Of a stretch of DNA of 43,462 nucleotides, positions 3,548 through 27,612 are shown in pieces. Origin of the DNA: an uncultured Clostridia bacterium (lineage in GTDB: Bacteria > Bacillota > Clostridia > Christensenellales > UBA1242). Numbering within the stretch: the first letter of the stretch is position 1; each line of letters begins with the position of its first letter. Position numbers and translations under genes: made by a program. The stretch spans positions 143,069-186,530 of the forward strand of contig CANQDK010000002.1 in NCBI GenBank assembly GCA_947591785.1. The letters run 5' to 3'. The notes under the pieces are model-generated. The model searched no databases and was not told the DNA's origin. It saw nothing but the letters and a program-made list of their open reading frames with translations.

Positions 3548-3554
3548 TTGTTTT

Positions 3555-3583
3555 ATTATATCACAATTGCAAGATAAAAACAA
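3555..3583 (-). promoter_or_regulatory. Promoter of the Y-family polymerase, at leaderless spacing
   Basis: Reading the minus strand: TTGTTT at 3583-3578, 17 bases, then TATAAT at 3560-3555, preceded by TG as in an extended -10. The predicted start falls at 3548-3547, at or one base before the ATG. Confidence 0.65.
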
Positions 3584-3657
3584 AATTAACAAATATTCAT
3601 AAAAAAATCGATTTTTAATAAAAAAAATAGAAATTTTGCGTTAAATCATACTTAAAA

Positions 3658-9683: not shown

Positions 9684-10209
9684 CTTCTGGTAAACACTGA
9701 TTGAGAGCATCAATAAAAGGCCTGTTTTTTTCATTAGAGTATAATGATGGCGTTTCTTTAATCTTGACAAAGTCAACCGCATCATAATTAAGTTTGTCAA
9801 TAATTCCAACACACAACAAATGAGAAATCACAAAAAGTGCATTTTGTTCTGTAAATTTCTGCTTTCTCAAAGCAGTAGTCAAAATTCTTTCATCGTCAAC
9901 AATTTCATCAAGTGCGGATTTTAAGAAAAATTCAATTTTTTCAAGGGCAAACTCATTTCCATTTGCACCAGCAAGAATTTGCCAAAACATATAAAACTCA
10001 AAATTTGGCTGAATTATATCGGCTATCCCTTTGTTAAAGAAATATGCAAGGCAATCCTCTGCAACACAATTCCCATCAAGAGCATCTCCACAAAGTTTAG
10101 AAAAGACATCAGCAAAGGAATCATCATCAATGCTGTCAAGGACTTTTTTTCTCATTTTAACAAAATTTTTATAAGCAGTATCTCTGCTTGTAAAATCTTC
10201 GTATCTCAT
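9661..10209 (-). CDS. Unrecognised 182-residue protein
   Basis: I cannot assign a family. The sequence is soluble-looking, helical, acidic in its first half (DSIDDDSFADVF) and contains no catalytic motif that I know. The ATG at 10209 (MRYEDF) is chosen because GAGG ends five bases upstream; the in-frame GTG at 10215 would absorb that site. It has no operon partner. Its 3' end overlaps the unrecognised plus-strand gene by 23 bases, tail to tail, so the two coding ends share DNA in opposite frames. Confidence 0.65.
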   Translation of the reverse strand: MRYEDFTSRDTAYKNFVKMRKKVLDSIDDDSFADVFSKLCGDALDGNCVAEDCLAYFFNKGIADIIQPNFEFYMFWQILAGANGNEFALEKIEFFLKSALDEIVDDERILTTALRKQKFTEQNALFVISHLLCVGIIDKLNYDAVDFVKIKETPSLYSNEKNRPFIDALNQCLPEVIDYLMA

Positions 10210-10342
10210 TTGCACCTCATAATAAAATTATACAAAAATTTATAAAAAAAACCAAATAAAAACATACTTTTGCCCACTAAATAAAGTTCGATTAATAATC
10301 TTTTTAAATTTTTCTCTGATTTTATGCCTGTTATCTTTGGTT

Positions 10343-11302
10343 TTACGCCTGTTTTCTTTGAATTCTGTTCTTTTTTGCATCAATATAGCAATTCACAATC
10401 ACTGTTTCCACCAATGGAAGAGCAACTAAAATAAAATCCAACATCATTGCAACAATAAGGAATATTATATAGAATGTTGGGGATATCACAAAAAAGACAT
10501 CAAAAAGCATTAATATCAAGAACATAGCAGTGACTGCAACTGCTAAACTTGCCAAAGCAATCCCCATATAAAGAAATATCGTTGCACGATAGCCCTTCAC
10601 AAGTTCCTTACTTAAAATCAAAACCCCCTTTGCATCAAGATTGTCTGTTTCAAAAAGAATATTTGCGGTGAAGCAATAGTTCAAAAAACAAACAACTCCT
10701 GGAACTATAAAAATACACAGCCAGAACATAATCAAAATCATTTTTATCACAAAAACGCAAAAAACTCTTACATATTTTTTTAGCGAAACAAACAAATTTT
10801 CAAATTTGGTTTTAATATCAAGTTGCTTTTGCATGATAAAGCCATACAATCCAACTTCAATATAGATATAAAATAAAATCGGTAAAGCAAAACTCAAAAT
10901 TGGAATAAAGGCGGACAACATAATTCCTGCCAAAGCAATTAAATTTGCAAAAATAATGTCATATATTGAACTTTCTTGCTCCTTCTCATTTTTTTCTGAA
11001 AAAATAATATTACGAATCTGTGTAATGTCGCTTTCATCTTCACTTTTTTTATCAAAATCCAGATAACTGTTTTTATCAATAGATTTTTGACGATTTCTGT
11101 TTCTGTCTTTTTGTGTTTTTGTTGAAATTTTTGAATGTGGAACTTTTGTTTTTTCTGAAAATGCAACATTTTCTTCATTTTTCAGTGTAAATTGGTTGTC
11201 TTTTTGACTGTCGTTTTCTTTTTTTTGAGCATTAACTTTTGAAAGCATGCTTTGTTGAATTTTTTCTTCAAAATATTTTTGTTCTTTTTTGTTCTTTCTC
11301 AT
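10343..11302 (-). CDS. Polytopic membrane protein with long charged N-terminal region (DUF975-like)
   Basis: Residues 1-110 are highly charged (Lys/Gln/Asp/Glu-rich), low in complexity and probably disordered and cytoplasmic. Residues 112-305 hold about six hydrophobic helices. Between them, LSKELVKGYRATIFLYMG resembles the amphipathic segment of DUF975 and similar small integral membrane families; this match is tentative. No Shine-Dalgarno precedes the ATG. Only ~15 bases separate the start from a terminator hairpin downstream of cls, leaving little space for its own promoter. It may therefore depend on read-through from the cls operon, or on a promoter overlapping the hairpin. Function unknown. 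Confidence 0.7.
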   Translation of the reverse strand: MRKNKKEQKYFEEKIQQSMLSKVNAQKKENDSQKDNQFTLKNEENVAFSEKTKVPHSKISTKTQKDRNRNRQKSIDKNSYLDFDKKSEDESDITQIRNIIFSEKNEKEQESSIYDIIFANLIALAGIMLSAFIPILSFALPILFYIYIEVGLYGFIMQKQLDIKTKFENLFVSLKKYVRVFCVFVIKMILIMFWLCIFIVPGVVCFLNYCFTANILFETDNLDAKGVLILSKELVKGYRATIFLYMGIALASLAVAVTAMFLILMLFDVFFVISPTFYIIFLIVAMMLDFILVALPLVETVIVNCYIDAKKNRIQRKQA

Positions 11303-11396: not shown

Positions 11397-12848
11397 TTAG
11401 AAAATCTGTGAAAATAATCTAAAAATAGCCTGTGCAAATCTTGTTAGCCATCGTTGGCGTTTAAAATAAAGAAGGTCAGCACACTTGCTGTTTGTCACAT
11501 CATTTTCAAATTGTTGACGATATTCTTCGTTCATTTTTTTAGAATACAAAACAACTGTATCTTCAAAATTTAACCCAAATGATCTATGGTCAATATTACA
11601 TGTTCCTATTGTCAGTTTATCGTCATCAACAACAATCACCTTACTGTGCATAAATCCGTTGTAAAGATATACATCTGCACCAAGTTCAACAAACTCTTTA
11701 ACATAAGAAAGAGAAACCCAAAAGATTGTTCGATGATCTGGCTTTGAAGGAATCATTATTTTCACATGAACTCCACTTGCGATTGCAATTCTTAAAGCAG
11801 AAATAAATGCTTCGTCTGGAACGAAATAAGGAGTTTGAATCAAAACTTGCTTTTTTGCATTTGTTAGGAGTTTTATAAAAACTTCCTTTGTGTATTGAAT
11901 TGCCTCATCTGGTCCTGAAGTGACAACCTGCAAAAATGTGTCGCCTTCAATTTGTGGCTTTGGATAATACCCTTCTTCAACATATTTTTTAAAGACAAAA
12001 TTTTCTTTTTTGACGTATCTCCAATCATTAAGGAATATGTTTTGAAGTTGATAAACGCCAGGTCCAATAATGCGGACATGACAATCACGCCAAGGTGAAA
12101 GTTTTTTATCCTTTCCAATATGGTCATCACGGATATTAACACCGCCTGTATAAGCAATTTTTCCATCAATAACAACGATTTTTCTATGATTACGATAGTT
12201 TAGCTTTAAATTTATTAAGCGGATATGGGCGAAAGGAGGGAAGAACTCTGCCACCTCCCCGCCTGCTTTTTCCAACTTTTTAAAGAATTTTCTTGGTGCG
12301 TGTAAGCAGCCAATACTATCATAAATAAATCGAACCTTCACACCATCTCTTGCTTTTTTAATCAACAAGTCCATAACTTTTTTGCCTGTTTCATCATCAG
12401 CAAAGATGTAATATTCCATATTAATGCTTTCTTTTGCGGCTTCGATGTCTAGAAGCAAAGAATTAAGTTTGTCTTGTCCGTTATAAAAAACTTTTACATC
12501 ATTTCCTGGGCAAATTATGTTACCATAGTTATAGCAACACTTAATCAACCCCATATCGCCACTTTTCAATTTTTGTTTTGTTTTGTCGTCATTAATAAGG
12601 AAGTCAGCGATTTTTTCATCAAATTCCACTTCATACAGTTTGTGATTTGAAATCATTCGTTTAACACGGAATGATAGCCCGCTTCCAAAAACGATATAAA
12701 GAAGATAGCCAATCACAGGAAGAAAAGTCAAAATAGTTATCCAACTTATAATGCTGGAAAGTTTTTTTCTTTCAAAGAAAACCATTGAAAGAAAGAGAAG
12801 AAAATTTGTTCCAATATATGCTATAAAAATCCAGAACCACGCATTCAT
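11397..12848 (-). CDS. cls: Cardiolipin synthase
   Basis: A membrane phospholipase-D-superfamily enzyme that condenses two phosphatidylglycerols into cardiolipin and glycerol. Two N-terminal hydrophobic helices (about residues 3-22 and 33-55) are followed by two HxKxxxxD catalytic motifs, at H221/K223/D228 and H401/K403/D408. Each has the trailing G(G/T)xN residues (GGVNIRD, GTCNIDHRS). The length of 483 residues is that of standard Firmicute Cls. It starts on the last codon of the giant surface-protein gene (ATGA overlap) with GGAG seven bases upstream, so it is translated from that operon. This suggests a link between cardiolipin supply and the giant membrane-anchored protein, though the sequence does not show what the link is. 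Confidence 0.93.
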   Translation of the reverse strand: MNAWFWIFIAYIGTNFLLFLSMVFFERKKLSSIISWITILTFLPVIGYLLYIVFGSGLSFRVKRMISNHKLYEVEFDEKIADFLINDDKTKQKLKSGDMGLIKCCYNYGNIICPGNDVKVFYNGQDKLNSLLLDIEAAKESINMEYYIFADDETGKKVMDLLIKKARDGVKVRFIYDSIGCLHAPRKFFKKLEKAGGEVAEFFPPFAHIRLINLKLNYRNHRKIVVIDGKIAYTGGVNIRDDHIGKDKKLSPWRDCHVRIIGPGVYQLQNIFLNDWRYVKKENFVFKKYVEEGYYPKPQIEGDTFLQVVTSGPDEAIQYTKEVFIKLLTNAKKQVLIQTPYFVPDEAFISALRIAIASGVHVKIMIPSKPDHRTIFWVSLSYVKEFVELGADVYLYNGFMHSKVIVVDDDKLTIGTCNIDHRSFGLNFEDTVVLYSKKMNEEYRQQFENDVTNSKCADLLYFKRQRWLTRFAQAIFRLFSQIF

Positions 12849-15800
12849 ACGCCTTCTCCAGAGAAATTAAACACTATTCTAATTGTTTTTATTGTGACAT
12901 TTTGCTCACTGGCACTTGTTCTGTATGTGACAATATATGTCCTTGGCACGCTGTTCATATTTGCTGGAATAACCACATCTGTCAAATATTGCAAAGCACC
13001 AGAATTTTCTTGCACTTGTATGCTAAGGAAGGTTGTGGAATTTTTGATAGCTTCAAATTCGCTTTCATAATCACTGATAAGTTCAAGGCTTGAACTCAGT
13101 TCTAAGCATTTAAGAACCGTGTCCTTAACCGTTTCTGCAAACAGCGTTCTGTCCTCACCCAGAGTGACATTTTCAGTATATTCACCTGAAAAACTTTTTG
13201 AAACAAACTTAAATGATATTTCAAACTTTTGAACATCTTTAACTTCTTGTCGGCTGTCACGGACAATCATAACAAAGTTTCTTGTTTCCACATCTCCAAC
13301 TGATTTTCCAGAGAAAGTGACACTTCTCACTCTCTTGGAAAGTTTATTTCCAGAAAGTTCCCAGAACTCATAAGAAAGTCCAGACTCCTTACTTACCAAT
13401 GATTCAACTGCAAACACGCCATCTGTTTGAACTGCAATAAATCTCTTGTTTACAGTTGAATAGATGTAAAGTGAAACATTATAAGTTTTAATTTTTTGAC
13501 TCAAAGAATTGATATAAATGACATTTGCAAACTTATTATCTCCAGAAATTGTATCTTGCCCACTGGAAAGTGTGGTTAAGGAGTTTTGAGTTCCTTTCTT
13601 ATACCAAGTAAGTCCTTCGGTTGAATCGATTTGACTTAAATCAAATGCTGAGCCCTTTTCCAAAGCGAAATCCAAACTTTCTTGTTCAGTGTCGCAAACC
13701 AAAACTTTTACTGTGAAATAGCCAACAACTTGTCCTGACGATTTTGCAGAGATACCAATTGTGATTGTTCTTTCTCCAACACTATCAAATCTCCAAGTAC
13801 CTTCACTGAACAGTGCATTTGAACTGTTAAACACAACTGCATTGTTTCCGTCTTTTAGCAATTTATATTTTTTGTTGTTATATGATTTCAAAGTTGAATC
13901 AAACAACTTACTGAAATTCAATTCTTCGCCAATATTACATGTGAATGCCTTTCCTTCCAATCCTGATGTGCTTATAGGATTTGCAGAAGTTGGATTGTAG
14001 GAAGAGTTGGTGTAAGCATAAGCATATCCAGTTGGCACAGCAAACACAGAATCATCAATCTTATAGATTCCTGTTGAATTTGAAGTTCCAATTGTTGTGC
14101 TGCTTGTTCTAAAGTGAAGAACAAATGTTCCAATTGGAGTTGAAGAAGTTTCATCACTTTCAAACAAGCCGTTATCACCAGAAACTTTCATATAAACATG
14201 TATAGTGATTGTTTGTGTGTCAAGCGAGAACCCTTCCACAGTGGTGATAAGCCCACGAGCATCAATATTTGCCTGTCCGTATCCTTGAGAACTGATTTTG
14301 CTTACCTCAAATTTAAACTTATACAAGTCGTTTGTTGAGAAGTTTCCGTTACGAGAAGTGAACACAGAATTGCATTTAAGTGTCACATCTTTCCCCCAAC
14401 TACTGATTGGAATAATGTAATATTTTCTGCTTGCATCTCTTGAAACTTCGATATAGTCTGCAACATCAATAGAGTTATCTGAAAGACTTGTTGTTGCTGA
14501 CGCGTAAAGTGGATAGATATCAAATGGTTGCTCATATCTATAAAGCTTTCCACTATCTTGATACAAGAAATAGAGTTTTGTTGTCTTATGATCGCGTCCA
14601 CCAAGTTCTTCGACATGATTTATATGCAAATCAATACTGTTTGTATAGTCAACAATTGTAGAATTTGCAGTGTAAGCAATCTTTCCGTTTGACATTACTC
14701 TGGCAAGACTAATTGCACCACCATTATATTCAATAAGATTTTCAATTGTTCCACTAGCACTTTCGACATCATTTACTATGTGGTTTAGAGCCAGAATATA
14801 GAATTGTCCTTTTGTGATATGCTCAGCACCGTTTTCCATCATATTTTTCGTTATTCCAACATACTCGCGTGTCACATAACTTCTCTTGTTTGACAGAGAA
14901 ATTATGCTTGGTGTGAATCGCTCATAAATGTTGTCAGCAGATGTCCAATCAGCAACCACTGTAAAGGTATTTCCACTCTTTCTATAATAAACTTTTGTTG
15001 CTTCTTTACTTGCTGCGGAAGCCACTTTTCTTACATAAATCATTTCAGATTTATCTTCATTTTCAAAAGCATAAAGTTCTTTATCATAAAGCACAAGGTC
15101 AACACTTTCTCCCTTTTCAAGTCTAACTTCAAGCGTGTCGTTATAGATTGTTCCATGATTTTTTGTTGCATACTCTCCATCAATCAAATTTGTGGAAGCA
15201 AAGATATTTTCATCAAAATCCTTTCGTTTCAATGTGTAGAACAAAGGAAGTGTTGTCGAATTGCCACTCTTTGATAATGTAATGTTGAATGTGACATTCA
15301 TTTCATTTTCAACACCCCAAACATCACCGCTAAGTTCAGGTATTGTAAATTCAGTTCCTGTTCGACTATCAAGACCATAGCCATAAGATATACTTGTTGA
15401 AGTACTGCCTCTTTGATGATATGCAAAATTAGAACTAGTCACAAATTTCAAAGACAAACTATCACTTGCATAAATCTGTTTTCCGTTTGCAACGATTGTA
15501 ATTTTTGTAATCGTCAAATCGTTTATATCTGTTGAACTGTTTGCTATATTTGAACTTTGTGCTAAATTCTGTTCATTTATTGCATAAGTTTCAACACTCT
15601 TATCATCTTGATTTTTTAAATGGAAACCAACAATATCCATTCCACTAAGATAAACATAAGACAGTTTTTCTCCATTAATTTTTTCTGGTTCTGAAACAGT
15701 GTTTTTGTAGTAATTTGATAAAACCGGTTTTACTCTTGTATATTCTTTACTTTTACCTTGAGCACCTTCACTTGGAACCAAAGAATTACCATGATTTTGA

Positions 15801-18800
15801 ATTGTTTCATCATATAAATAGAATTCTGGTGAACTTTCTGCATCACCTATTGTAAAGTAATCTTCATATTCATAAGGAGAACCTTGCTGATTATATTTTG
15901 TTGGTCGACTCTTCTTTGTTAAACCTGTCAAAAATCCTTTTTCTTTAAAACTTGAATTTTCTATTTTTCCTTCTTCATATCTTACAGATGTGCCTTCCTT
16001 AAGAGCGTTTCCATATTCGACAGTGTAAGTTCCCAATCTGTCTGTCCCTTCATCACATTTCAAATAGACTTCAACTGTTTTAATTGATTCTCTCTCTGGA
16101 TTTGCGACATTATCTCCAAACCAATTTCCGTTACTTTCACTAGGAAAGACTTTATAAATTCCATTGCCTCCATTAGACAATTTTGCTTCTTCTCCAAAAG
16201 TTTTAGTAAAACTTTCTCCCTTTTCAGTTATTACAACAATTCTTACGGTTAGACCAGTTCCTGTATTGTTTTCAACAGAAATATAGTTATTATTCTTTGC
16301 AGTTATAGTGTCTTTGTATATAAATGAATCTGAAACATTACTGTCCATTTTAACTTCATAATCAAATGAGCCAACTTTCATATAACCCTCTGCATCATAG
16401 TCTTGACGCAAGGTTGTGTATCTTGCTCCAAATTCTAAAGATTCGCCCTCTTTAATTTCGGACACTTGAGCACTCAAAATTGGGTTTACTCTTGAAACTA
16501 CGATGAAATAGAATCTCATCTTAAATTCAAATTCGTCTTCAAATTCAAGATAGAAATTGGCATTTCCAAACTCAAACTGTTTTATTTGTATTACCGCATT
16601 CGATGTGGAATTTGATGTAAATCCGTCATCATTTGCAGACCAACTTGATGATTCAAAAACCAATGTGTTATTTCTTCCATCAGTGACATCTGCACTTCCA
16701 GCAGGTTTGTCATTGTATGTCTTTCCAGCAAGTTCAACACTTGTGTTTCTATATTTATAAGTCAAATTTCTCATTGAGTTTTCTGTTGAACCATGCAACA
16801 ACACATTCATAACAGCAATATAGTTGTTTCTTCCAAACAAGTTCATTTCATATTTTTCAACATTTACCATATTGAAATCAACAGTGTATGGATTTGCTCT
16901 GTTGCTTGAAATGAGTTGTCCTGCTCCATCATCTTCATATTCTTGTGCAGTTATCGCCGAATTTGTTTCACTTTCTGTGTCTGTCGCAAAAGTCAAAGTT
17001 GTGTTTGGTTGAACAAGGAACAACAAATTGTGACTTTCTCTCACAACATTTCCATCGCCCAATTCAACAACATAGTCAATTCTAAGCATAACATGGTTTC
17101 CGTTGTTGTTTGAACCTTGTGCTGAAATTGTCCAGTCACTTCCATCACTAACAGCAGTCAAGGTGATGTAGTTCAATCTGTTTGTGTATGTGTCATCACT
17201 TCCTTCAATGAATCCATCTTCATTTAGTGTGCATTTTGCACGAGGAATCAATCCTGTTGTGTAACGATATTTTGCACCAAGTGCAGTTGTGTTTTCTGAT
17301 GTTCTTAATCTGTTGTGAACTGAAAGAGCACTGTTTGTCAACGCTTTTTCTGTTGCTGTTGAACCTGCATTTTGAGCCAAAGCAATTGATGCTCCATAAA
17401 TTTGTATATCAAATTTTGCACCAATCTCTTGCATACGCGATTGTGTCATAACATCGCCATTTTCATCAAGAATGCCAAGTTCTTCAGCATAAGTGTCAAG
17501 GAATGAATAGAATTTATTCTTTTGAGCTTTAAGTTCAATCTTCTTCATATCCCCATTTGGCCCAAGTGCATCACTATTATATTTCATGCTGAATTTCAAC
17601 AGAATTTCAATACCATAATTGTAATTTGAGATTGAAATCTCTTCCTCTTCTTCTCCAACTTTATATAATGTTGGAACATATTGCACTTCTTGAGTTCTGT
17701 CTTCGGCTTTAATTTCGACATTATCTGCAAGAGCAATTGCTCCTGAATTTTCCCAACCATCAGAACCCCTCACTTGCTTTTGCAATTTGATAACAAAGTT
17801 CGCTTTTTCAAGATTGATTTCAATGTCATTCGTTAGGGTTTTATAAACAGCAACAATTCGAGATGTGAGTTGCGGTATCATTGAGAACAACATTGTGTCA
17901 AGTCGCTCTCCACCTGTCTTTGCCAAAGCTTCTGTTCCATAAGTTCCATCGTAAATATAGTCTGCATAGGATTTTTGCAAATCCTGTATCTTTGTTTCTA
18001 TACTGTCTGCAACAATTGAAACTGTCTGCACATCAACAACACTTTCCCCAGATTTCTTTATCAATCGAACATAATACTTTCCGCCTGTTGCACCTGTTTG
18101 ACTGAACGCATATTTCAATATTCTATTCTTTGAGAAAATCTTGACATCGTCTTGTTTTTTCAAATCTTCTGCATAGAATTGTTCTTTTGATGCGACATAA
18201 TTTGGCGAGTTGAGTTTCAAATCAACAACCTTTCCAATCAGCACAACAACTTGATATATCTTTTCAACTCCATTGACTCTAACAATGAAATCAATTGAAC
18301 CATTTTTCGATTTATCAACAAGAGTGAAAGTCAAGTTGAGCATTGGTGCGTTTTCACCCGTATTCTCTGCAAGCACAACTTCCCCTGAGCCTGAATTTGT
18401 CAAAATCAATCCGTCACCATAACCCAATTCCAGATTGTTTATGTTGTTTGCATTGACTCTAATTTCCCAAGAGCATTCGCTTTCTTCAACAACAAAATTT
18501 CCTTCTTCATCACTAATCGCTGTCATAACAACACGATTCTCTGTGTTAAAGTCGGCAGGAGTTCCAAAGAAGTTCTCTATTTCGACTCCGTCTGACAAAT
18601 ATTCTTTTTTGTCCTCAAGTTCAACATCGTTTGGCTTTGGATAGTTTATCTTAACATCAACATTTGGAAGAACGGTGTAGTTGTAAATTAAGGTAAATCT
18701 GAAAAGTTCCTCTTCTGTGCTTGCACTGAAATAGCCAATTGTCATTGTTAAAGAAACAACTTGCTCTTCTCCGACATTATTTGGCCTTATTCTCCATGTC

Positions 18801-21800
18801 TTAACAAAACTTCCTTCAACAAATGCCCTATATTCAAATGGAGAATCTTCTTTAATGGAAGGCAACTCTTCCTCAACATTTTCTATATTGAATTCATATT
18901 CATTTCCGCCATACATCATACGCGAGTCTTTATATGTGTATATCGTGTCTGTTTCAAAACTCTGCTTAACAACAAAACTTCTTTCAAATGTATAGCCTGC
19001 AATGGTGATTTCAAACTCAAACACTGTGTCTTGTGTCAAATGTGCGAATTTTAGGCTTGTTCCGTCAATAACAACATATTTTGCTTCTTCTCCCAGACAT
19101 GTTATTGTCACAGCATCACGAATTGGTTCGCCATGAATATCTTTGATTGTCAAAAGAGCACTCAAAGAATAAATTTCTCCACCAACAAGTTCATTTCCTG
19201 TTTCAGTTATTTCATAAGGCCCCGTCACTGTGATTATCAATTTGAAGGCAACCTTCTTTATTGTGTAGAAACAGAATTCAAAGCTCATATCTCTTTGAAC
19301 AAAATCTTGTGGTGTTAAAGACAAAACACCAGAACCATTGACACCTTCAAAAACTAAATCATTCTTAAAGGCATCTCCATATTGTCCTTCTCCTAATGGC
19401 TTTGCATAAACCCAGAACGCTTGCTCAAAGTTTTCGCTTGTGCCACTGAGTTCGCTTAATGTGACATTAAAGACATTTTCACTGCTTCCTGCTTTGACAC
19501 TGTATTTGAACACATTGTTGTTTGCCACCAAAGATGCTTCATTCACAGTCACTGTTGCTTTATAGTTTGGTGATTGGTTAAATTTGAATGTATATGAAAT
19601 GTCAGTGTTGAGAGCACGATTTCCATCAACATAATAGAATTTTGTTATTTCAAGAGTCAGCCTTGTTGAATCGTTTTTAAGTTTTATTTCAAAATCAAAA
19701 TCTTCGTCACTTCCAATCAAAGAACTTTCACTTCCATCAAGTCTAAGTGAGCAGGATTCAACAATGGTTTGAAGTTCAACGATTGAAAGAGGTTCGCTGT
19801 TATCAGCAATTCTAGCACTAAGAATCTTGAATCCAACCTTAACTTCTGCATCTTCGCCAAAGTCTGGATTAACAAATCTAACTGTTTCTTCATCTTTAAA
19901 TCTACTGTTTGTTACACCCAGTTTTTCTTGGAGATTGATTTTATAAGCACCATCTATATAGTAAACAGAATCCTTGTCGAGATATTCCACATCACTTGCA
20001 TAAGGATAGTTTACACTTCCACCTTCAAGATTGCTTACAACTTTGATTCTGTAATTCCAGTAGAAAGTGTTCATTCCAACGCCAGAAATTGTCGCTCTTA
20101 CAACAATATAGGCATTCATATCGTCTGATTGTTTAATATTGTTTATTACTAAGAATCTATCTTCATCTATGCTTGCAAGCCCATCAATATAACCAACACA
20201 GTCTTTGACAATAGACAATGTGATATTGAAATCTCCGCCATAATAGTATATCCCAGGCAAGTAATTCCCAGTTTCATCTTTGTCATCAGCCGACTCACTT
20301 GCCATATTGTGCAAAATTTTATGTCTTTTGCCTGCTTGAAGTTCTTGATAAACTTCATTTTCTTCTAGATTTGTCACACTGATTCCAACAAGGTTTGCAA
20401 AATCAACATTGTTGAATTTGTTGAATGGCGAATCTGTATCAAGTTCTGTATTGTAATTATATTTAACAAATTTGTCACCAATTTGACTGACAATTGCGTT
20501 GATGTTTATAAGAACAGTGAGTTTCTCAGATATTATCGTTCTAACTCTAACAATATTTCTTTCAGAACCAGTTTGTGGACTAAAGAAATCTTTAGATGAA
20601 TATGTTTTTAAAGTTTTTCCATCAGCCAGTCTTAAATTGCCTTTTGGTTCTTCAAAAGTGAATGAGTCATTGGCAGTCTTATATTCTTGTCCAAACACAA
20701 GAACAAGAGTTTCAGTTCTATTGAAAGTAACCGTTTCAACAGCTCCTTCTCCACTGCTCTTTTTGATTATGTTTTGAGCCATTTCGTAAGCATTTTCGCC
20801 AAAACCAATATCAAAGACAAATCTTGCTTCTCCACAAACATTGATAATGTTCTGTTCTTCACCATATTGTTTCAAAATGACAGCATCAATATTCACATAA
20901 TCTTCATAGGCGGATACATTCTTCACAACAACAAAATCTTGCTCAATTCTGTCACCCAGATTCATGTTTAGGCTGTTTTCATTGACTCCAAACAAAACAT
21001 TAGTTCCGCTTGTTTTCAATGTTATATAATCAAGTCCTGTCCCTGTGACATTTTTATATTCAAATTCTGTTTTTCTTGATGTCGCATTTGTGCCTTTTTG
21101 GTGATAACCATTTTCACCTGTCACTTTATATATGTCAAATTTTGGAGCAACACTTAATTCTTGCAAATTCACAAAACTATTTTCGCTTGCACTTGGAACT
21201 TGTTGCACCAAAACTATGTTTGGATTAACATATAAAATTATGTCTGTATGAAGTGTGTATTTTGTGTTTGGGCCACAATAAATTGTAAATGAAACTGTCT
21301 GCAAATTGTAGAATTCGCCAACCTGAATATAAAATTTGAAGTTTCCAGACATTTCTGACGAGCCAATTTGAAGCCCATCGTTGCAAACAAAATAGTCACT
21401 TTCTTTTCCAACCATTCCATTCAAAATTGTGGACCATGAATATGTCGTGTCACCCTTTTGAGAAGAAATTGGAATGTAATCGTCCAAAAGATACTGTTCT
21501 TCCGCAAAAATTGCTGGCGGACGATTGTCTTCACTGTTTGTTTTCAAATATTCTGAATATTCACCCTGAGCGTAAACATTGAATCTTGAAGATAGTGTTG
21601 CACATTGCAAGCAAACAAGCCTAAATTGTATATTGAAAAGTCTTTCGCTCATATCGGTTACATTAAATTCAATAGTTGTTGCCGATTGCAAAAAGCCATA
21701 GAAAACAATTCCATAAACTTCACCTTGAATTGCAGTCCTTAGTGATGGTGCAGAAGAATCTTCTGTGTTTGTTTTATTGACAAATTTTCCATCTTCACCA

Positions 21801-24800
21801 ACATTTCCAGAAGTTGCAAATCCAATAAGTTTCAAAATATCTGTGCTCATTCCGTTGTAGAAAGAATCTGAAAGAGTAAATCTCAAATTTTCAACTCTTT
21901 GCCCATCATCTCCACCCAAGAAAACATCAATCAAATTGGATAATCTGATTTCATTTCCAACAGTTGCATATTTTCTGACGGTAACATTTCCATTATTTGG
22001 AACTCCGTTAATTTCATTTCTTTTGAAACTTGATTTATCATTTCTTATTTCTGCACCAACTTCCTCTAAGGTGTCATCGTAGGTGATGTAATCTATTCCT
22101 GTGCAAGTGACTTCAAAAGTCAATTCTTTGGAAAGTTCTTTGTTGTTAAAGTAAACAACTTCTCCGTTTTTATCAACAATATGAATCTTCAAAGTTGTTG
22201 TAACATTTTCGCCACTATTAAATCCTTGAATTCTCTTATTGGCTTTATCAAAATTGAGAACTGGCGAATTTGATTCATGCGGTATTTCCACGAATTGAAC
22301 ATCATACAATCCCGCTTTATCTTGAATTGTCCTGCCATGTTGATCCTTTAAAGTGAAAATAAGTAAGGAATTCAACCCAGTTTCATCATTTAGAATATCT
22401 GACAGAGTTTCACCAACGAAATTTCTTCTTCCCCATTCTATTCTTGCTTCATTTACATCGTCAATGATTTTTATAGTATCAGGAACCAAATCTTCATCAA
22501 TGTCCACATCTATGTCTGATTCATAAACACCACTCATTGAAACAACTTCTGGATAGTAAATTGTCAAAGTTGTGACATCAGGTTCATCGCTCTTAACAAC
22601 ATCTTTAAAGAATTCTTCTCCAAATTCATTAACATATTGAAGTTCAAATCTAACCTTTCTTTCTGCACCACCACGAGAGAATTGTTCCTCATCAATATAG
22701 AAACTTGCATTGACAAGAATTTCATTTCCGTTAAGTTCGTTTATCTTCACATCTGGCGTTTGAAGAACGACAATATCTGTTTCGACATTGTTTATATCCT
22801 TACATACAACCTTAAGACGCTCTGTGCCTTCTTGATTTGAATTAAATGCACTGCGAATCTTCACAACATCAACTGCAGGATTGTCTGTTTGCAATGCCAT
22901 ACTGAATTTTATAACCTGAATTTTGTTTCCTTCTTCATCAACACAAACAGAAGGAATATAATTTTCACGAGTTTCTTCATTTGTGACTATATCTGCATTT
23001 GCGTCAAACTCAAAAGTTGGTTCAAATTTAAAGAATGGCAAAGCATTGTCAATTTCAATTTGCAAAGGCCTGCTTACAACAATAATATTATAATCTCCTT
23101 GTTCCGTCAAAACAGCCTTTTTATTAACATCAGTGCGGATAATGGCTGCAACAACAAAAACATTTCCAGACAAACTTTTTGATGCTGTCAAAACATTACC
23201 TTCAACCTCATAGAGATTGTAAGAATAGGTTTCATCAGGGCCAAGAACAGGTTTTGGAAGCCCATAAATTTCATTTTTTAAAGCGTAAACTTTTGGATTT
23301 TTACAATCGAATATTGTCGTCAAATCCATTTCCAAACTTGTAAACAAGAAGAATTTTACAGCACGATAAACATTGTCTTTGCTGACTTCATTAAGCAGTG
23401 TTGCATCATGCAAGTCCACAGATGCAGGCTTGATTTGTCCATCTTTTGAATAATTTATCGTCATCTTTATTGCAGAGTTTGTTGCCCAAGACGGAGCAAT
23501 CTCAAAAGCCGAAATTGTTGATTCAAATTCCAAAACAGGTTCGAGATTTTCTTCTCCACTCAAATTGTAGTAAACATTCCACTTGCTCCCCTCTTGAGAG
23601 TCTTGATAGAACAAATTCAACGACAATTCAAATGTTCTTCCTTCAAGGTTGCCGTCAGCAATTTGCCAGTAATAGTTGTTGTAGATTGAAGGTTCTGTGT
23701 TTGGAAGTAAATAATAATCTGCGTTTGAGTCTTCCCAATAATTTTTACTACTGTCAAACGCTTCACGAGTGATAGATGTTCTTCCATTTGCTGAAACAAC
23801 TTTCATCACACTTCCGCCATATATCAACAAGTTTTTATATTGAGAACCTTTTGGAAGTTTAATTCCAACATTTGCGAACAAAGAACTTAAATCTCTTCCT
23901 GTTTCTGCAGTTATTGACATATTCAAACTTCCGTCACCTCTCGTTGAATTGAGAGTTAGGTTGTAATATTTGTCAATAGTTGGACTGAAACTTAATTTTT
24001 TAAGTTCAGGATTATTGTTAAACACAATATTTGCTTTTTCAATTTCTTCAGAAATGACTTTTATGTCAACATAACTTTTAATACATTGTTCACGGTTTTG
24101 TTCCAAATATTGCGTTATTTGTGTTACAAGTTCTTTTCCTTCATACTCCTTAAATCTTTCCAAAACAACATGTTGATAATAAGAGTTTGAAAATGTGTAA
24201 GCAGTAATTCTGTCAACGCGGGATTCGTCTATAATGTCCTTCGTTTTAAAACGCCCAGTCATTTCATCTAAGCATTCAATATTTGTCTCTTCACTTGAGA
24301 AAAAAACTCTCTTTTGTTGTTCAACATCGGCAAAATTGTTTCTGCTGTTTTCTGGACTAAACAGTGTTTCAATCGAAAATTCACCTCTTAAAATCTCTTG
24401 CACTCCACCATACTCAGCATCTTCTTTCCCTGCGACACGTAATTGCAATTCTGAAACTCCTACATCAGAAGAAACAGACACCTTGATTGGTAAGAGCATT
24501 AAATTTGAAGATTTGATTGAGAATGTTGAATATCCTCCAACAATATTCCCTAAACTGTCCGTTTTCAATTTTATTTCAATAGGCTTTCCAATTTCTGCTT
24601 TTTGAGGAATGATTATGTAATTATTTTCTAAAGTCCCATTGTTTTTCAAAACGCCATTATTCAACTCTAAAGTCAAATCTTTTTCAGTTATATCCTCAGT
24701 GGTTGTCGTGACAACAATACTGAAATTTGAGGAAGTGTTGAAATGATATTTCATGTTTGAATCCGAGATAGAAGATTTGCTTTCATCAAAAAAGGCAAGT

Positions 24801-24979
24801 CCATCAACAAACTCGTCACCTGTTTCAACAACAATTGACTCTGGTTGAACAACTTTCTGTTTAAAATCTCCAAGCAAAAACATAATAAGCACAGTCGTTC
24901 CTGCAATAGCAACAAGTCCAAGCACCGCAAGCAATACAGCAAGCCAAAGTTTTAAAACTCCTCTTTTTTTCTTTCTCAT
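12845..24979 (-). CDS. Giant (4044-residue) signal-anchored extracellular protein
   Basis: An uninterrupted 12.1 kb reading frame. The N-terminus MRKKKRGVLK followed by a hydrophobic stretch to about residue 36 is a signal anchor (type II orientation) without an obvious cleavage site. Everything after it looks extracytoplasmic: alternating hydrophobic/polar beta-type sequence rich in Thr, Ser, Asn, Val and Tyr, as in stacked Ig-like or cadherin-like modules. I found no enzyme motif, LPxTG anchor, SLH domain or C-terminal membrane helix. Weak internal repeats are present: NYP..DVE..DK near residues ~1650 and ~2105, and a hhxVxPN-type strand near ~1250, ~2100 and ~2655. GGAGA precedes the ATG. 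It is coupled to cls. An adhesin or wall-spanning scaffold is plausible, but the function is unknown. Confidence 0.85.
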   Translation of the reverse strand: MRKKKRGVLKLWLAVLLAVLGLVAIAGTTVLIMFLLGDFKQKVVQPESIVVETGDEFVDGLAFFDESKSSISDSNMKYHFNTSSNFSIVVTTTTEDITEKDLTLELNNGVLKNNGTLENNYIIIPQKAEIGKPIEIKLKTDSLGNIVGGYSTFSIKSSNLMLLPIKVSVSSDVGVSELQLRVAGKEDAEYGGVQEILRGEFSIETLFSPENSRNNFADVEQQKRVFFSSEETNIECLDEMTGRFKTKDIIDESRVDRITAYTFSNSYYQHVVLERFKEYEGKELVTQITQYLEQNREQCIKSYVDIKVISEEIEKANIVFNNNPELKKLSFSPTIDKYYNLTLNSTRGDGSLNMSITAETGRDLSSLFANVGIKLPKGSQYKNLLIYGGSVMKVVSANGRTSITREAFDSSKNYWEDSNADYYLLPNTEPSIYNNYYWQIADGNLEGRTFELSLNLFYQDSQEGSKWNVYYNLSGEENLEPVLEFESTISAFEIAPSWATNSAIKMTINYSKDGQIKPASVDLHDATLLNEVSKDNVYRAVKFFLFTSLEMDLTTIFDCKNPKVYALKNEIYGLPKPVLGPDETYSYNLYEVEGNVLTASKSLSGNVFVVAAIIRTDVNKKAVLTEQGDYNIIVVSRPLQIEIDNALPFFKFEPTFEFDANADIVTNEETRENYIPSVCVDEEGNKIQVIKFSMALQTDNPAVDVVKIRSAFNSNQEGTERLKVVCKDINNVETDIVVLQTPDVKINELNGNEILVNASFYIDEEQFSRGGAERKVRFELQYVNEFGEEFFKDVVKSDEPDVTTLTIYYPEVVSMSGVYESDIDVDIDEDLVPDTIKIIDDVNEARIEWGRRNFVGETLSDILNDETGLNSLLIFTLKDQHGRTIQDKAGLYDVQFVEIPHESNSPVLNFDKANKRIQGFNSGENVTTTLKIHIVDKNGEVVYFNNKELSKELTFEVTCTGIDYITYDDTLEEVGAEIRNDKSSFKRNEINGVPNNGNVTVRKYATVGNEIRLSNLIDVFLGGDDGQRVENLRFTLSDSFYNGMSTDILKLIGFATSGNVGEDGKFVNKTNTEDSSAPSLRTAIQGEVYGIVFYGFLQSATTIEFNVTDMSERLFNIQFRLVCLQCATLSSRFNVYAQGEYSEYLKTNSEDNRPPAIFAEEQYLLDDYIPISSQKGDTTYSWSTILNGMVGKESDYFVCNDGLQIGSSEMSGNFKFYIQVGEFYNLQTVSFTIYCGPNTKYTLHTDIILYVNPNIVLVQQVPSASENSFVNLQELSVAPKFDIYKVTGENGYHQKGTNATSRKTEFEYKNVTGTGLDYITLKTSGTNVLFGVNENSLNMNLGDRIEQDFVVVKNVSAYEDYVNIDAVILKQYGEEQNIINVCGEARFVFDIGFGENAYEMAQNIIKKSSGEGAVETVTFNRTETLVLVFGQEYKTANDSFTFEEPKGNLRLADGKTLKTYSSKDFFSPQTGSERNIVRVRTIISEKLTVLININAIVSQIGDKFVKYNYNTELDTDSPFNKFNNVDFANLVGISVTNLEENEVYQELQAGKRHKILHNMASESADDKDETGNYLPGIYYYGGDFNITLSIVKDCVGYIDGLASIDEDRFLVINNIKQSDDMNAYIVVRATISGVGMNTFYWNYRIKVVSNLEGGSVNYPYASDVEYLDKDSVYYIDGAYKINLQEKLGVTNSRFKDEETVRFVNPDFGEDAEVKVGFKILSARIADNSEPLSIVELQTIVESCSLRLDGSESSLIGSDEDFDFEIKLKNDSTRLTLEITKFYYVDGNRALNTDISYTFKFNQSPNYKATVTVNEASLVANNNVFKYSVKAGSSENVFNVTLSELSGTSENFEQAFWVYAKPLGEGQYGDAFKNDLVFEGVNGSGVLSLTPQDFVQRDMSFEFCFYTIKKVAFKLIITVTGPYEITETGNELVGGEIYSLSALLTIKDIHGEPIRDAVTITCLGEEAKYVVIDGTSLKFAHLTQDTVFEFEITIAGYTFERSFVVKQSFETDTIYTYKDSRMMYGGNEYEFNIENVEEELPSIKEDSPFEYRAFVEGSFVKTWRIRPNNVGEEQVVSLTMTIGYFSASTEEELFRFTLIYNYTVLPNVDVKINYPKPNDVELEDKKEYLSDGVEIENFFGTPADFNTENRVVMTAISDEEGNFVVEESECSWEIRVNANNINNLELGYGDGLILTNSGSGEVVLAENTGENAPMLNLTFTLVDKSKNGSIDFIVRVNGVEKIYQVVVLIGKVVDLKLNSPNYVASKEQFYAEDLKKQDDVKIFSKNRILKYAFSQTGATGGKYYVRLIKKSGESVVDVQTVSIVADSIETKIQDLQKSYADYIYDGTYGTEALAKTGGERLDTMLFSMIPQLTSRIVAVYKTLTNDIEINLEKANFVIKLQKQVRGSDGWENSGAIALADNVEIKAEDRTQEVQYVPTLYKVGEEEEEISISNYNYGIEILLKFSMKYNSDALGPNGDMKKIELKAQKNKFYSFLDTYAEELGILDENGDVMTQSRMQEIGAKFDIQIYGASIALAQNAGSTATEKALTNSALSVHNRLRTSENTTALGAKYRYTTGLIPRAKCTLNEDGFIEGSDDTYTNRLNYITLTAVSDGSDWTISAQGSNNNGNHVMLRIDYVVELGDGNVVRESHNLLFLVQPNTTLTFATDTESETNSAITAQEYEDDGAGQLISSNRANPYTVDFNMVNVEKYEMNLFGRNNYIAVMNVLLHGSTENSMRNLTYKYRNTSVELAGKTYNDKPAGSADVTDGRNNTLVFESSSWSANDDGFTSNSTSNAVIQIKQFEFGNANFYLEFEDEFEFKMRFYFIVVSRVNPILSAQVSEIKEGESLEFGARYTTLRQDYDAEGYMKVGSFDYEVKMDSNVSDSFIYKDTITAKNNNYISVENNTGTGLTVRIVVITEKGESFTKTFGEEAKLSNGGNGIYKVFPSESNGNWFGDNVANPERESIKTVEVYLKCDEGTDRLGTYTVEYGNALKEGTSVRYEEGKIENSSFKEKGFLTGLTKKSRPTKYNQQGSPYEYEDYFTIGDAESSPEFYLYDETIQNHGNSLVPSEGAQGKSKEYTRVKPVLSNYYKNTVSEPEKINGEKLSYVYLSGMDIVGFHLKNQDDKSVETYAINEQNLAQSSNIANSSTDINDLTITKITIVANGKQIYASDSLSLKFVTSSNFAYHQRGSTSTSISYGYGLDSRTGTEFTIPELSGDVWGVENEMNVTFNITLSKSGNSTTLPLFYTLKRKDFDENIFASTNLIDGEYATKNHGTIYNDTLEVRLEKGESVDLVLYDKELYAFENEDKSEMIYVRKVASAASKEATKVYYRKSGNTFTVVADWTSADNIYERFTPSIISLSNKRSYVTREYVGITKNMMENGAEHITKGQFYILALNHIVNDVESASGTIENLIEYNGGAISLARVMSNGKIAYTANSTIVDYTNSIDLHINHVEELGGRDHKTTKLYFLYQDSGKLYRYEQPFDIYPLYASATTSLSDNSIDVADYIEVSRDASRKYYIIPISSWGKDVTLKCNSVFTSRNGNFSTNDLYKFKFEVSKISSQGYGQANIDARGLITTVEGFSLDTQTITIHVYMKVSGDNGLFESDETSSTPIGTFVLHFRTSSTTIGTSNSTGIYKIDDSVFAVPTGYAYAYTNSSYNPTSANPISTSGLEGKAFTCNIGEELNFSKLFDSTLKSYNNKKYKLLKDGNNAVVFNSSNALFSEGTWRFDSVGERTITIGISAKSSGQVVGYFTVKVLVCDTEQESLDFALEKGSAFDLSQIDSTEGLTWYKKGTQNSLTTLSSGQDTISGDNKFANVIYINSLSQKIKTYNVSLYIYSTVNKRFIAVQTDGVFAVESLVSKESGLSYEFWELSGNKLSKRVRSVTFSGKSVGDVETRNFVMIVRDSRQEVKDVQKFEISFKFVSKSFSGEYTENVTLGEDRTLFAETVKDTVLKCLELSSSLELISDYESEFEAIKNSTTFLSIQVQENSGALQYLTDVVIPANMNSVPRTYIVTYRTSASEQNVTIKTIRIVFNFSGEGV
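18600..20060 (-). repeat. Diverged internal module repeat in the giant protein
   Basis: Two segments, encoded near 19960-20050 and near 18600-18690, align as SVNYPYASDVEYLDKDSVYY and KINYPKPNDVELEDKKEYLS. Each follows a hydrophobic strand (NYRIKVVSNL; NYTVLPNVDV). They are about 455 residues apart, suggesting a duplicated module of that order that has diverged strongly. Confidence 0.45.
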
Positions 24980-25252: not shown

Positions 25253-25281
25253 TTGACATAAAATCTCTTTTGTTTTATAAT
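25253..25281 (+). promoter_or_regulatory. Perfect consensus promoter at leaderless spacing
   Basis: TTGACA (25253-25258), exactly 17 bases, TATAAT (25276-25281). Predicted transcription start is 25288-25289, and the ATG is at 25289. An in-frame ATG at 25280 overlaps the -10 hexamer and cannot be the start on this transcript. Confidence 0.85.
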
Positions 25282-25288
25282 GAATCTT

Positions 25289-26035
25289 ATGAAAAAAGAA
25301 AAATTAAACACAAATTGGGAAGTTTACAACTATCTCAACATAACAAACAGAAAATTAGGCAAGCAATACAAATATCTTGGCAGAGATTTTATGCCAGATG
25401 AATTTGATGTCAATGAAGAAACAATAAAAGAGAGGCTCTTTCTCAACGAGTTGGCAGACAATTCTGTTATGCCTGATTTTGTTTATGAAGAAAAAAGAAA
25501 AATTAAAAAACACTTCAAAAATTCAATAAAAAATTGCAAAAATTTGCTTAAAAACAACATTTTATCAAGTTTTTCACCTGAATTTTTGCAAAAAATAAAC
25601 ATTTATATGGATATGAGAACATTCCTTACAAAGCAAATTCTCAAAGATTTTCGCTCCCAAGATTTTGATGAAGTTGAGGCATATCGTGAAATATTCAATC
25701 TAAATCCTATTCTTGGAGAAATGTTTGATGAATTATACAAAGACAAAATCGAGCCTCAAGCATTATTACTAAATCTTGAAAATAGATACAAAAAAATATA
25801 TCTTGAGAAAGTGAAAGAAATTGAAGAAAAGAAGAAAAAACATAAAAACACAACTGTTTTGGAAACAATAAATCAAAAACAAAAGAAAAACGAAAAAGCA
25901 AAAATCAACAAAAAAGACGTTAAAAATCTTGAAAAATCGGTTGAAAAACATGAAAAAATGAAAAAAATGAAGGATATTCAAGATTTCAAAACAAAAGAAA
26001 AATTGGCAAAAACAAAAAACAAGGAGAAATTATGA
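25289..26035 (+). CDS. Unrecognised lysine-rich protein, coupled to ABC-F
   Basis: No family recognised. Residues 1-160 (counted from the ATG at 25289) look folded and soluble, with aromatic-rich helices (YNYLNITNRKLGKQYKYLG). From about 165 the chain is extremely rich in Lys and Glu and looks like a coiled coil or a basic tail, suited to RNA or ribosome contact. The start at 25289 is chosen because the consensus promoter places +1 there; no Shine-Dalgarno is present. The stop overlaps the ABC-F start (ATGA), with GGAG upstream of that start inside this gene. A role together with the ribosome-binding ATPase is an inference from the coupling only. Confidence 0.75.
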   Translation: MKKEKLNTNWEVYNYLNITNRKLGKQYKYLGRDFMPDEFDVNEETIKERLFLNELADNSVMPDFVYEEKRKIKKHFKNSIKNCKNLLKNNILSSFSPEFLQKINIYMDMRTFLTKQILKDFRSQDFDEVEAYREIFNLNPILGEMFDELYKDKIEPQALLLNLENRYKKIYLEKVKEIEEKKKKHKNTTVLETINQKQKKNEKAKINKKDVKNLEKSVEKHEKMKKMKDIQDFKTKEKLAKTKNKEKL

Positions 26036-27612
26036 TTCAGGCTATTAATGTTTCTTTAGCATTTGGAGGACGAAAACTTTATAAAGACGTTAATTTAAAA
26101 TTCACAAAAGGAAACTGTTACGGAATTATTGGTGCAAATGGTGCAGGAAAGTCCACTTTTTTGAAAATATTAACTGGGGAAATCGAACCAAACACAGGCG
26201 AAATTGTTTCAACACCTGGGGAAAGAATGTCTGTTTTAGAACAAAATCAAAACAAGTATGATAATGAAACTGTGCTTGACACGGTTTTGCTTGGACATAA
26301 GCGTTTGATGGAAATTCAAAAAGAAAAAGATGAACTTTATGCAAAACCTGATTTTTCCGATCAAGATGGTATTCGTGCAGGTGAACTCGAAACAGAATTT
26401 GCAGAACTTGGCGGTTGGGAAGCCGATGGAGAAGCAAAATCTCTTTTGCAAAATTTGGGAGTTTCGGAAGATTGTTTCTATGAACTTATGTCAACTCTAG
26501 ATGCAAAAATCAAGGTGAAAGTCCTTCTTGCACAAGCACTTTTTGGAAACCCTGACATTCTTATTCTTGATGAACCTACAAACAATCTGGATTTTAAGAC
26601 AATTCGTTGGCTTGAAAACTTTTTACTTGATTTTGAAAATATTGTTATCATAGTTTCACACAATCGACATTTCTTAAATAAGGTTTGCACACATATTTGT
26701 GATGTAGATTTCGGCGAAATTAATATGTATCTTGGAAATTATGATTTCTGGTATGAAACCAGTCAACTTCTTGCAAGACAAAGGAAAGACCAAAACAAAA
26801 AAGCAGAAGAACGTGCAAAAGAATTGAAAGAATTTATTGCAAGATTCTCAGCAAATGCATCAAAATCAAAACAAGCAACCAGCAGAAAAAAAGAACTTGA
26901 AAAATTGACTATTGATGATTTCAAGCCTTCTTCGAGAAAATACCCTTATGTTGATTTTAAACCAGAACAAGAAATTGGAAAAGAAATATTAAAAGTTGAA
27001 AATTTGACTAAAAAAGGTATGTTTAAGAATCTTTCTTTTACGGTTGAACATGGGCAAAAAATTGTTTTTCTATCCTCAAATTCACTTGTTTTAACAACAT
27101 TGTTTAATATTTTGACAGGAAAAGAGACGGCTGACAGTGGAACAATACGTTTTGGAAAAACAATAAAATTTTCTTATCTTCCGCAAGATAACAGAGAATT
27201 TTTTGATAATTGCCAACTTTCAATCGTTGATTGGCTTAGGCAATACTCAAAAGACAAAACAGAAAGTTTTGTAAGAGGTTGGCTTGGAAGGATGCTTTTC
27301 TCTGGTGAAGAAAGCTTAAAATCAGTCAATGTCCTTTCTGGTGGAGAAAGAGTCCGCTGTATGCTTGCAAAAATGATGCTTGAAAGTGGCAACTTTTTGA
27401 TTTTTGACGAACCAACAAACCACCTTGACCTTGAAAGCATAACATCATTAAACAAAGGCATGACAAATTTCAAAGGCCCTATGCTTTTTGCAACAGGCGA
27501 CCAAGAAATCATTGAAACCGTTGCAAATCGAATTATTGACATTGTAAACGAAAACACAATAATAGACAAACAAATGAGTTATGAAGAATATATGGAAAAA
27601 TTTAAAAATTAA
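26032..27612 (+). CDS. ABC-F family ATPase (YkpA/YbiT-like) with degenerate sites
   Basis: A soluble protein with two fused ABC ATPase domains and no membrane segment, as in ABC-F translation factors that act at the ribosomal E site. Domain 1 has an intact Walker A (GANGAGKST, about 35-43) and LILDEPTNNLD, but its signature region reads LDAKIKVKVLLAQAL in place of LSGGE. A charged linker follows at about 245-300. Domain 2 has VLSGGERVR and FDEPTNHLDLES, but its Walker A region reads FLSSNSLVLTT, lacking the GxGKS/T lysine. Thus only one composite site (Walker A of domain 1 with the signature of domain 2) looks complete. I recall such asymmetry in some Firmicute members of this group. Length is 526 residues. 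Confidence 0.9.
   Translation: MIQAINVSLAFGGRKLYKDVNLKFTKGNCYGIIGANGAGKSTFLKILTGEIEPNTGEIVSTPGERMSVLEQNQNKYDNETVLDTVLLGHKRLMEIQKEKDELYAKPDFSDQDGIRAGELETEFAELGGWEADGEAKSLLQNLGVSEDCFYELMSTLDAKIKVKVLLAQALFGNPDILILDEPTNNLDFKTIRWLENFLLDFENIVIIVSHNRHFLNKVCTHICDVDFGEINMYLGNYDFWYETSQLLARQRKDQNKKAEERAKELKEFIARFSANASKSKQATSRKKELEKLTIDDFKPSSRKYPYVDFKPEQEIGKEILKVENLTKKGMFKNLSFTVEHGQKIVFLSSNSLVLTTLFNILTGKETADSGTIRFGKTIKFSYLPQDNREFFDNCQLSIVDWLRQYSKDKTESFVRGWLGRMLFSGEESLKSVNVLSGGERVRCMLAKMMLESGNFLIFDEPTNHLDLESITSLNKGMTNFKGPMLFATGDQEIIETVANRIIDIVNENTIIDKQMSYEEYMEKFKN

What the first reader, a model, noticed from the sequence alone, without database searches (positions are those of the whole stretch)
12845..24979. 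4044-residue surface protein of unknown type
An intact 12.1 kb frame encodes a chain with an N-terminal signal anchor, then about 4000 residues of beta-type extracellular sequence. It lacks LPxTG, SLH or a C-terminal membrane helix. Known giant adhesins usually show clear tandem repeats or wall anchors; here the modules are strongly diverged. Being held only by its N-terminus, it would project a long fibre or span the wall. No family is recognised.
Basis: partly seen in the sequence, partly recalled or inferred. Interest (0 to 1): 0.75.

Follow-up and report, generated by a model that had tools for sequence, protein, structure and literature searches.

The report
Giant anchored fibre of tiny-genome bacteria
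A gut bacterium with a very small genome carries one huge, membrane-anchored protein predicted to be a long chain of antibody-like beads; nearly all members of its genus keep the same gene at the same place, which makes it a good candidate for the arm such partner-dependent cells use to hold on to other cells.

Summary
The frame is real: minus strand, 12845-24979, 4044 aa, no Pfam, NCBIfam or PHROGs match. It is a core gene of its lineage, the reduced-genome gut family UBA1242 (Christensenellales): a profile of residues 1-1100 hits 101 of 112 genus genomes, a first-domain profile 238 of 309 family genomes; in 391 class genomes only 8 outside the family hit, all weakly. An ABC-F gene is beside it at 61 of 61 testable genus loci, cls at 46 of 50. 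Orthologues are collinear, nearly repeat-free, mostly 20-30% identical, under purifying selection (dN/dS 0.13-0.26). Predicted structure: transmembrane helix (11-35), then beta modules resembling cadherin, Ig and S-layer domains (residues 1-1130, pLDDT 87; 2446-3645, pLDDT 77; the rest not modelled). The core ends near residue 3645; one of two clades, this one included, adds a tail. No sortase was found in the genome, which fits N-terminal anchoring. Best reading: a stalk of roughly 100 nm for contact with partner cells, in bacteria predicted to depend on partners. Architecture is well supported; the adhesive role is inferred and a structural envelope role is not excluded. A second conserved giant, anchored by its C-terminus, lies elsewhere on the contig.

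The parts
12845..24979 (-). giant gene, 4044 aa
   Evidence: 101 of 112 genus genomes match a profile of its first 1100 residues
24988..24991 (-). GGAG ribosome-binding site 8 bases before the ATG
   Evidence: sequence
24875..24949 (-). transmembrane helix (residues 11-35) after a lysine/arginine-rich end; W12, G27 and P46 conserved in at least 90% of 62 rows
24050..24844 (-). membrane-proximal beta modules (residues 46-310), among the best conserved parts; G148 and D172 invariant in 38 rows from several genera of the family
14045..24979 (-). collinear core, residues 1-3645, shared by both clades of the genus
15737..15997 (-). poorly conserved, low-confidence stretch inside the core (residues 2995-3081)
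12848..14044 (-). C-terminal tail, residues 3646-4044 (399 residues); 35 of 61 mapped sequences have such an addition of 320-1783 residues
11397..12848 (-). cls, cardiolipin-synthase type (PLDc_N, PLDc_2); its ATG overlaps the giant's TGA
10343..11302 (-). 319-aa membrane protein, no Pfam family; recognised after cls in part of the relatives
9661..10215 (-). 184-aa conserved protein of unknown family; also near three short family-level forms of the giant
25280..26035 (+). 251-aa lysine-rich protein, divergently transcribed
26032..27612 (+). ABC-F type ATPase, divergent; found in the fetched stretch at 61 of 61 testable genus loci

Best explanation
The gene encodes a cell-surface stalk held in the membrane by its N-terminal helix. 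Beyond the membrane follow some 25-30 non-identical beta-sandwich modules in a row (my estimate, from about seven in the first 1130 residues), long enough (roughly 100 nm) to pass through the wall and reach out. The membrane-proximal part is constrained by something in its own cell; the distal part and the added tail vary between species and meet the outside. In a lineage reported to be partner-dependent and to lack standard nutrient transporters, its most likely job is to tether the cell to a partner cell or gut surface. Shown by computation: gene, conservation, synteny, selection, hydrophobic anchor, core and tail. Predicted: fold. Inferred: fibre shape, outward projection, adhesion.
For: Found in nearly all genus genomes, as a rule in one copy, and in most of the family. 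Collinear and nearly repeat-free. Purifying selection, dN/dS 0.13-0.26 in six computable pairs, weaker than on cls (0.04-0.05) and ABC-F (0.01-0.03), three pairs each. Conservation falls from anchor to tip: bin correlation rho -0.39 in the core and -0.51 overall, mean scores 1.28 (residues 1-700), 0.86 (701-2900), 0.61 (2901-3640), 0.45 (tail); pN rises distally in the pairs L038/L039 and L054/L206. Models: helix 11-35 then beta modules; structural neighbours are mostly cadherin, Ig and S-layer chains, with the adhesins FdeC and LigA. No sortase in 12 of 13 genus genomes, the own one included, so a membrane anchor is the expected attachment. [quoted passage not shown]
Against: No ligand-binding domain, lectin or known adhesin motif was found. 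Fold matches have middling Z (best 8.9 with 12.6 A rmsd; 5.3 for the second model), which may mean only a common arrangement. Only 2330 of 4044 residues were modelled, and pTM of 0.54 and 0.56 leaves the relative placement of modules open. The low dN/dS and fixed module order are unusual for an adhesin facing variable partners and fit a structural part as well. Short family forms (1342-1474 aa) could not reach so far. Six other-genus forms (L234-L239) gave no match at all to the full-length profile; they are linked by the first-domain profile and, in part, by neighbours. The conservation slope is uneven: the pair L204/L205 shows no clear gradient. Two good-quality genus genomes (G028, G136) show neither giant nor cls, which could be real loss.
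Confidence: 0.5

Rival explanations
1. It is an envelope-building part, such as an S-layer-like coat or a wall scaffold, anchored in the membrane and keeping its module order because it packs against itself or the wall.
For: Nearly universal in the genus, as a rule single copy, collinear, under purifying selection; S-layer proteins SbsB, SbsC and Sap appear among the fold neighbours; acidic, net charge -193.
Against: S-layer fold matches are no stronger than those to cadherins; no SLH or other known wall-binding domain; 20-30% identity between species is low for a self-packing lattice (judgement); length ranges from about 1342 to 5689 aa within the family.
Confidence: 0.27
2. It works with cls and the membrane neighbours in lipid or polymer handling, as a groove- or bridge-type carrier.
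For: cls follows directly in 46 of 50 testable genus loci, often with a 4-base overlap; it is also adjacent in the four loci of two other genera that were read (L230-L233), in L233 facing the other way.
Against: No cls was found in the 2.1-4.5 kb read downstream of an intact giant in L034, L040, L052 and L194; the listed fold neighbours are beta-sandwich domains, and no AsmA- or VPS13-type chain is among them, which does not exclude one.
Confidence: 0.06
3. It belongs to the spore surface or to sporulation, since the family keeps sporulation genes.
For: Sporulation genes reported for UBA1242 (PMC12306168).
Against: None of the ten window proteins scanned matched a sporulation family; no direct test was possible.
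Confidence: 0.06

Closest known systems
Apilactobacillus kunkeei Giant1-5 (PMC12863079, abstract start and passages seen)
   Same: Huge (3000-8000 aa) extracellular proteins in a small Gram-positive symbiont genome; a short beta part resembling Ig domains in three of them.
   Different: Those have a signal peptide, imperfect internal repeats, beta-solenoids, SH3b-like C-terminal ends, no predicted transmembrane domain, and lie in a row of five genes; here a membrane helix at the N-terminus, few and weak repeats, one gene.
Gli349 leg protein of Mycoplasma mobile (PMC6935860, passages seen)
   Same: May work like it: a single very long surface molecule (97 nm as isolated) with a distal foot, in a parasitic bacterium of small genome. 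Its N-terminal membrane segment and diverged beta repeats are recalled, from no call.
   Different: No sequence relation was tested; no gliding partner genes (Gli123, Gli521) were looked for; the window holds a penicillin-binding protein gene, so unlike Mycoplasma these cells should make wall.
Giant ORFs of Omnitrophota (PMC10066038, passages seen)
   Same: Giant genes in genomes of suspected symbionts, few annotated domains, adhesion proposed.
   Different: Those counted are over 20 kb, many with several transmembrane helices, and described for Velamenicoccia as poorly conserved; this one is a collinear core gene.
Ig-like/cadherin-like bacterial adhesins (FdeC 4e9l, LigA 8gyr)
   Different: No sequence similarity found; no LPxTG end. 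Their own anchors (outer-membrane barrel, lipid) are recalled, from no call.

Membership tests
Sortase-anchored (LPxTG) adhesin | C-terminal LPxTG, helix and positive tail; sortase in genome | tested here: not met
   C-terminus ends ...FNFSGEGV without helix; no sortase PF04203 in own genome, while three control genomes ring
SLH S-layer protein | SLH domains | tested here: not met
   no Pfam or NCBIfam model at E<=1
Repeat-rich giant adhesin (Ebh and SiiE type; names partly recalled) | many alike tandem repeats | tested here: not met
   one weak internal match in the window protein (E 7e-4); 17 of 71 sequences have any at E<=1e-3 (with a control that worked)
A. kunkeei Giant family | DUF5776 domains at the C-terminus | tested here: not met
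   no Pfam match in the window protein at E<=1; none in 23 C-terminal parts
A. kunkeei Giant family | beta-solenoid domain; SH3b-like C-terminal fold | tested here: inconclusive
   residues 1-1130 and 2446-3645 modelled only; the tail was not modelled
Ig-like/cadherin-like beta-sandwich tandem proteins | tandem beta-sandwich modules | tested here: inconclusive
   mostly beta models, the first confident; middling Z to cadherin and Ig chains
Gli349-type leg protein | sequence relation to Gli349 and gliding genes nearby | not tested
   no Gli349 sequence was fetched
AsmA/VPS13-type lipid bridge | open beta-groove fold | tested here: inconclusive
   not among the 50 fold neighbours listed for either model

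The most novel reading that the evidence does not exclude
UBA1242 bacteria live attached to other gut microbes, and this giant, with the second C-terminally anchored giant found in 23 of 25 genus genomes tested, is their core, vertically inherited contact apparatus: a nearly repeat-free molecular arm with a conserved base, fixed module order and a species-specific tip, doing what type IV pili are proposed to do for Saccharibacteria (PMC12206443, search listing only).
Probability: 0.25. Interest if true: 0.85.

Novelty: new variant of a known kind. Interest (0 to 1): 0.58.

Why it matters
UBA1242 is an uncultured, genome-reduced gut family; in one chicken study it rose with age and supplied 11 of the 18 reduced-genome bacteria negatively associated with body weight (PMC13155120, passages seen). 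Its partners are unknown. A surface gene that takes about 1% of a 1.2-Mb genome and is kept in most of the family gives a handle to label, fish out and image these cells with whatever they touch. It also contrasts with the giant genes of Omnitrophota, described as poorly conserved (PMC10066038), so here module-by-module evolution can be read.

Tried and rejected
Pfam, NCBIfam, PHROGs and PDB sequence searches of the whole protein gave nothing useful (one PDB hit at E 1.2). Scanning 23 orthologues in three pieces gave two lone weak hits: YfjL_C in 1 of 23 (0.0055) and PKD_4 in 1 of 23 (3.3e-4). A PDB profile search of residues 1-1130 gave nothing up to E 1. The viral collection gave no relative of residues 1-1100.

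The self-BLAST repeat test (also the BLAST part) was invalid: its planted control was missed. It was redone with tiles and a control that worked. A first residue-mapping script was wrong and was redone.

The transmembrane-helix profile finds weak look-alikes in all 13 genomes searched; I do not claim relatedness. Four order-level hits, all covering the helix, and eight class-level hits, six of them covering it at least in part, lie outside the family and are weak; not counted as relatives. The full-length profile missed six other-genus forms, L234-L239. AsmA-, VPS13- and gliding-type proteins were not among the listed fold neighbours, which excludes nothing.

Foldseek against the PDB could not be run: the machine was busy at every attempt. 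The VIA look is limited to the chains that Foldseek ranks highest.

Literature: four searches aimed at the lineage listed no paper whose title or abstract start describes large surface proteins in UBA1242; four others looked for analogues. Only open-licence PMC papers are covered. I opened six papers: one read whole (PMC12306168), five by passages (PMC11573180, PMC6935860, PMC10066038, PMC13155120, PMC12863079). Of the five papers holding both 'UBA1242' and 'surface' I opened one.

Full report
WHAT IS THERE. The frame is on the minus strand, 12845-24979, 4044 aa. It starts with ATG behind GGAG, and its stop overlaps the ATG of cls by four bases. The chance that so long a frame is open at this composition is about 10^-128. 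Codon-position GC (0.44, 0.34, 0.26) resembles that of four other window genes, so nothing suggests a foreign gene. The window also holds dnaA- and dnaN-like genes near its right end (names by recall from the sequences) and a penicillin-binding protein gene, so the cell should make wall.

WHOSE IT IS. Contigs of two relatives can be named by equal contig length (an inference): G121:C2 (176601 bases) and CALVZQ010000002.1, G140:C8 (36206 bases) and CANQNH010000008.1, both 'uncultured Clostridia bacterium'. Further down that list, by ABC-F identity, come Christensenella sp. UBA1242 (79%) and Candidatus Onthoplasma faecigallinarum (67%); NCBI places Onthoplasma in Christensenellales and PMC12306168 lists it under f_UBA1242. 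I take the family to be GTDB UBA1242; the genus name is not settled. This family is described as genome-reduced and partner-dependent (PMC12306168, whole text read).

HOW WIDESPREAD. With the first 2977 residues alone, 29 of 101 genomes match: 28 of the genus, plus one weak order-level match. With a profile of 23 orthologues (residues 1-1100), 101 of 112 genus genomes match, 70 of the 72 of good quality; the 23 source genomes match by construction. Of the 11 misses, 8 show no cls either (among them the good-quality G028 and G136, where loss may be real); the other 3 have cls within 1.3 kb of a contig end, so the giant would be cut off. In a later search with the first-domain profile, one of the 11 (G012) gave a weak hit. 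In an order-wide sample 35 of 396 match: 21 of the genus, 10 other family members, and 4 weak ones elsewhere; two listed family members missed (G299, G340) and both matched later. The first-domain profile (38 rows, whose genomes match by construction) hits 238 of 309 family genomes, 160 of 190 good ones, 29 of 42 genera. In a class-wide sample it hits 17 of 391, of which 9 are in the family and 8 are weak (E 7.5e-6 to 7.3e-4).

LOCUS. Of the 27 same-genus loci fetched first, 21 hold a complete frame, 5 are cut by contig ends (L035, L043, L051, L053, L055) and one is split by a stop (L031/G041). The 23-row full-length set is the window, those 21 and the cut L035. An ABC-F gene (over 60% identical) is in the fetched stretch at 61 of 61 testable genus loci, the window, L031 and other genera not counted; the listings place it upstream. 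cls follows on the same strand at 45 of 50 by the script, plus L201, whose cls frame is extended at its 5' end so that the script missed it; none was found in the 2.1-4.5 kb read downstream in L034, L040, L052 and L194. So the giant does not seem to need cls beside it.

SEQUENCE EVOLUTION. The 22 other rows of the full-length set align to the window protein over 2840-3636 residues at 20-30% identity. The closest relative fetched, L203, is 55% identical over 3898 aligned residues. A full-length profile was run on 18 further or repeated sequences: the 8 of the genus match in order along the chain, with extra copies of one stretch in L200, a long insert before the tail in L202 and a repeated end in L042; L230-L233 of two other genera match in part, in order; L234-L239 do not match. 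Weak internal repeats exist in 17 of 71 sequences; the window protein has one match at E 7e-4. In 61 sequences mapped with that profile, 35 run on 320-1783 residues beyond the equivalent of residue 3645 and 25 do not (22 of these by 21 residues or fewer; L218, L221 and L227 by 152-301); one (L035) is cut. On a midpoint-rooted tree of cls plus ABC-F for 52 of them, long and short fall into two clades (no support values shown). dN/dS is 0.130, 0.145 and 0.260 in the three pairs with dS below 1, and 0.14-0.19 in three saturated pairs; a seventh could not be computed. cls gives 0.043-0.049 in three pairs (a fourth not computable), ABC-F 0.009-0.027 in three. Conservation is highest near the membrane and lowest in the tail. 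The rise of pN towards the tip is clear in L038/L039 and L054/L206, modest in the window's own pair, and not clear in L204/L205.

ANCHOR. The N-terminal helix carries a conserved pattern (W12, G27, P46 in at least 90% of 62 rows). The basic side lies before it, so the chain should lie outside (positive-inside rule, general knowledge). No sortase is found in 12 of 13 genus genomes, the own genome included.

MECHANISM. Module size of about 155 residues is read from model 1 (about seven modules in 1130 residues, my reading of strand blocks and alignment ranges), giving some 25-30 modules and, at about 4 nm each (general knowledge), roughly 100 nm. For comparison, isolated Gli349 is 97 nm long (PMC6935860, passages seen). 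From this, from the outside-variable pattern and from the reported lifestyle, I infer a tether for cell contact. A structural envelope role is the main rival and is not excluded.

WHAT IS NEW. Giant surface proteins in small or reduced genomes are known (PMC12863079, PMC10066038; passages seen). What stands out here is a single, nearly repeat-free, collinear one with an N-terminal membrane anchor and no sequence family, kept in nearly all of a genus and most of a family. A second conserved giant with a C-terminal helix sits elsewhere on the same contig.

Noticed in passing
L279 4820-13405 (G000:C2, outside the window): Second giant, 2861 aa, N-terminal signal-like segment and C-terminal membrane helix; relatives of its C-terminal part in 23 of 25 genus genomes tested; no Pfam family up to E 0.01.
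   Followed up: partly
L279 13734-18209: Convergent 1491-aa protein with signal-like start, weak Ig-like matches (Big_13, Big_3_2, PKD, CopC) and a C-terminal helix.
   Followed up: no
window 35934-39089: 1051-aa protein with an N-terminal CvpA-like (Colicin_V) membrane part, residues 12-175, and a long remainder without Pfam match.
   Followed up: no
L235-L238: Short forms of the giant in other family genera (1474, 2425, 1465, 1342 aa), three of them still near a relative of the 184-aa gene.
   Followed up: partly
L240, L242 (order-level relatives): A 461-aa protein with a similar N-terminal helix lies directly after a large, to my eye beta-rich frame of at least 1263 aa (L240); L242 gave a similar weak hit.
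   Followed up: no
L201 2058-3632: The ABC-F gene appears as two separate frames (233 and 239 aa) in this relative.
   Followed up: no
G004: The only one of 13 genus genomes tested with sortase matches (three).
   Followed up: no
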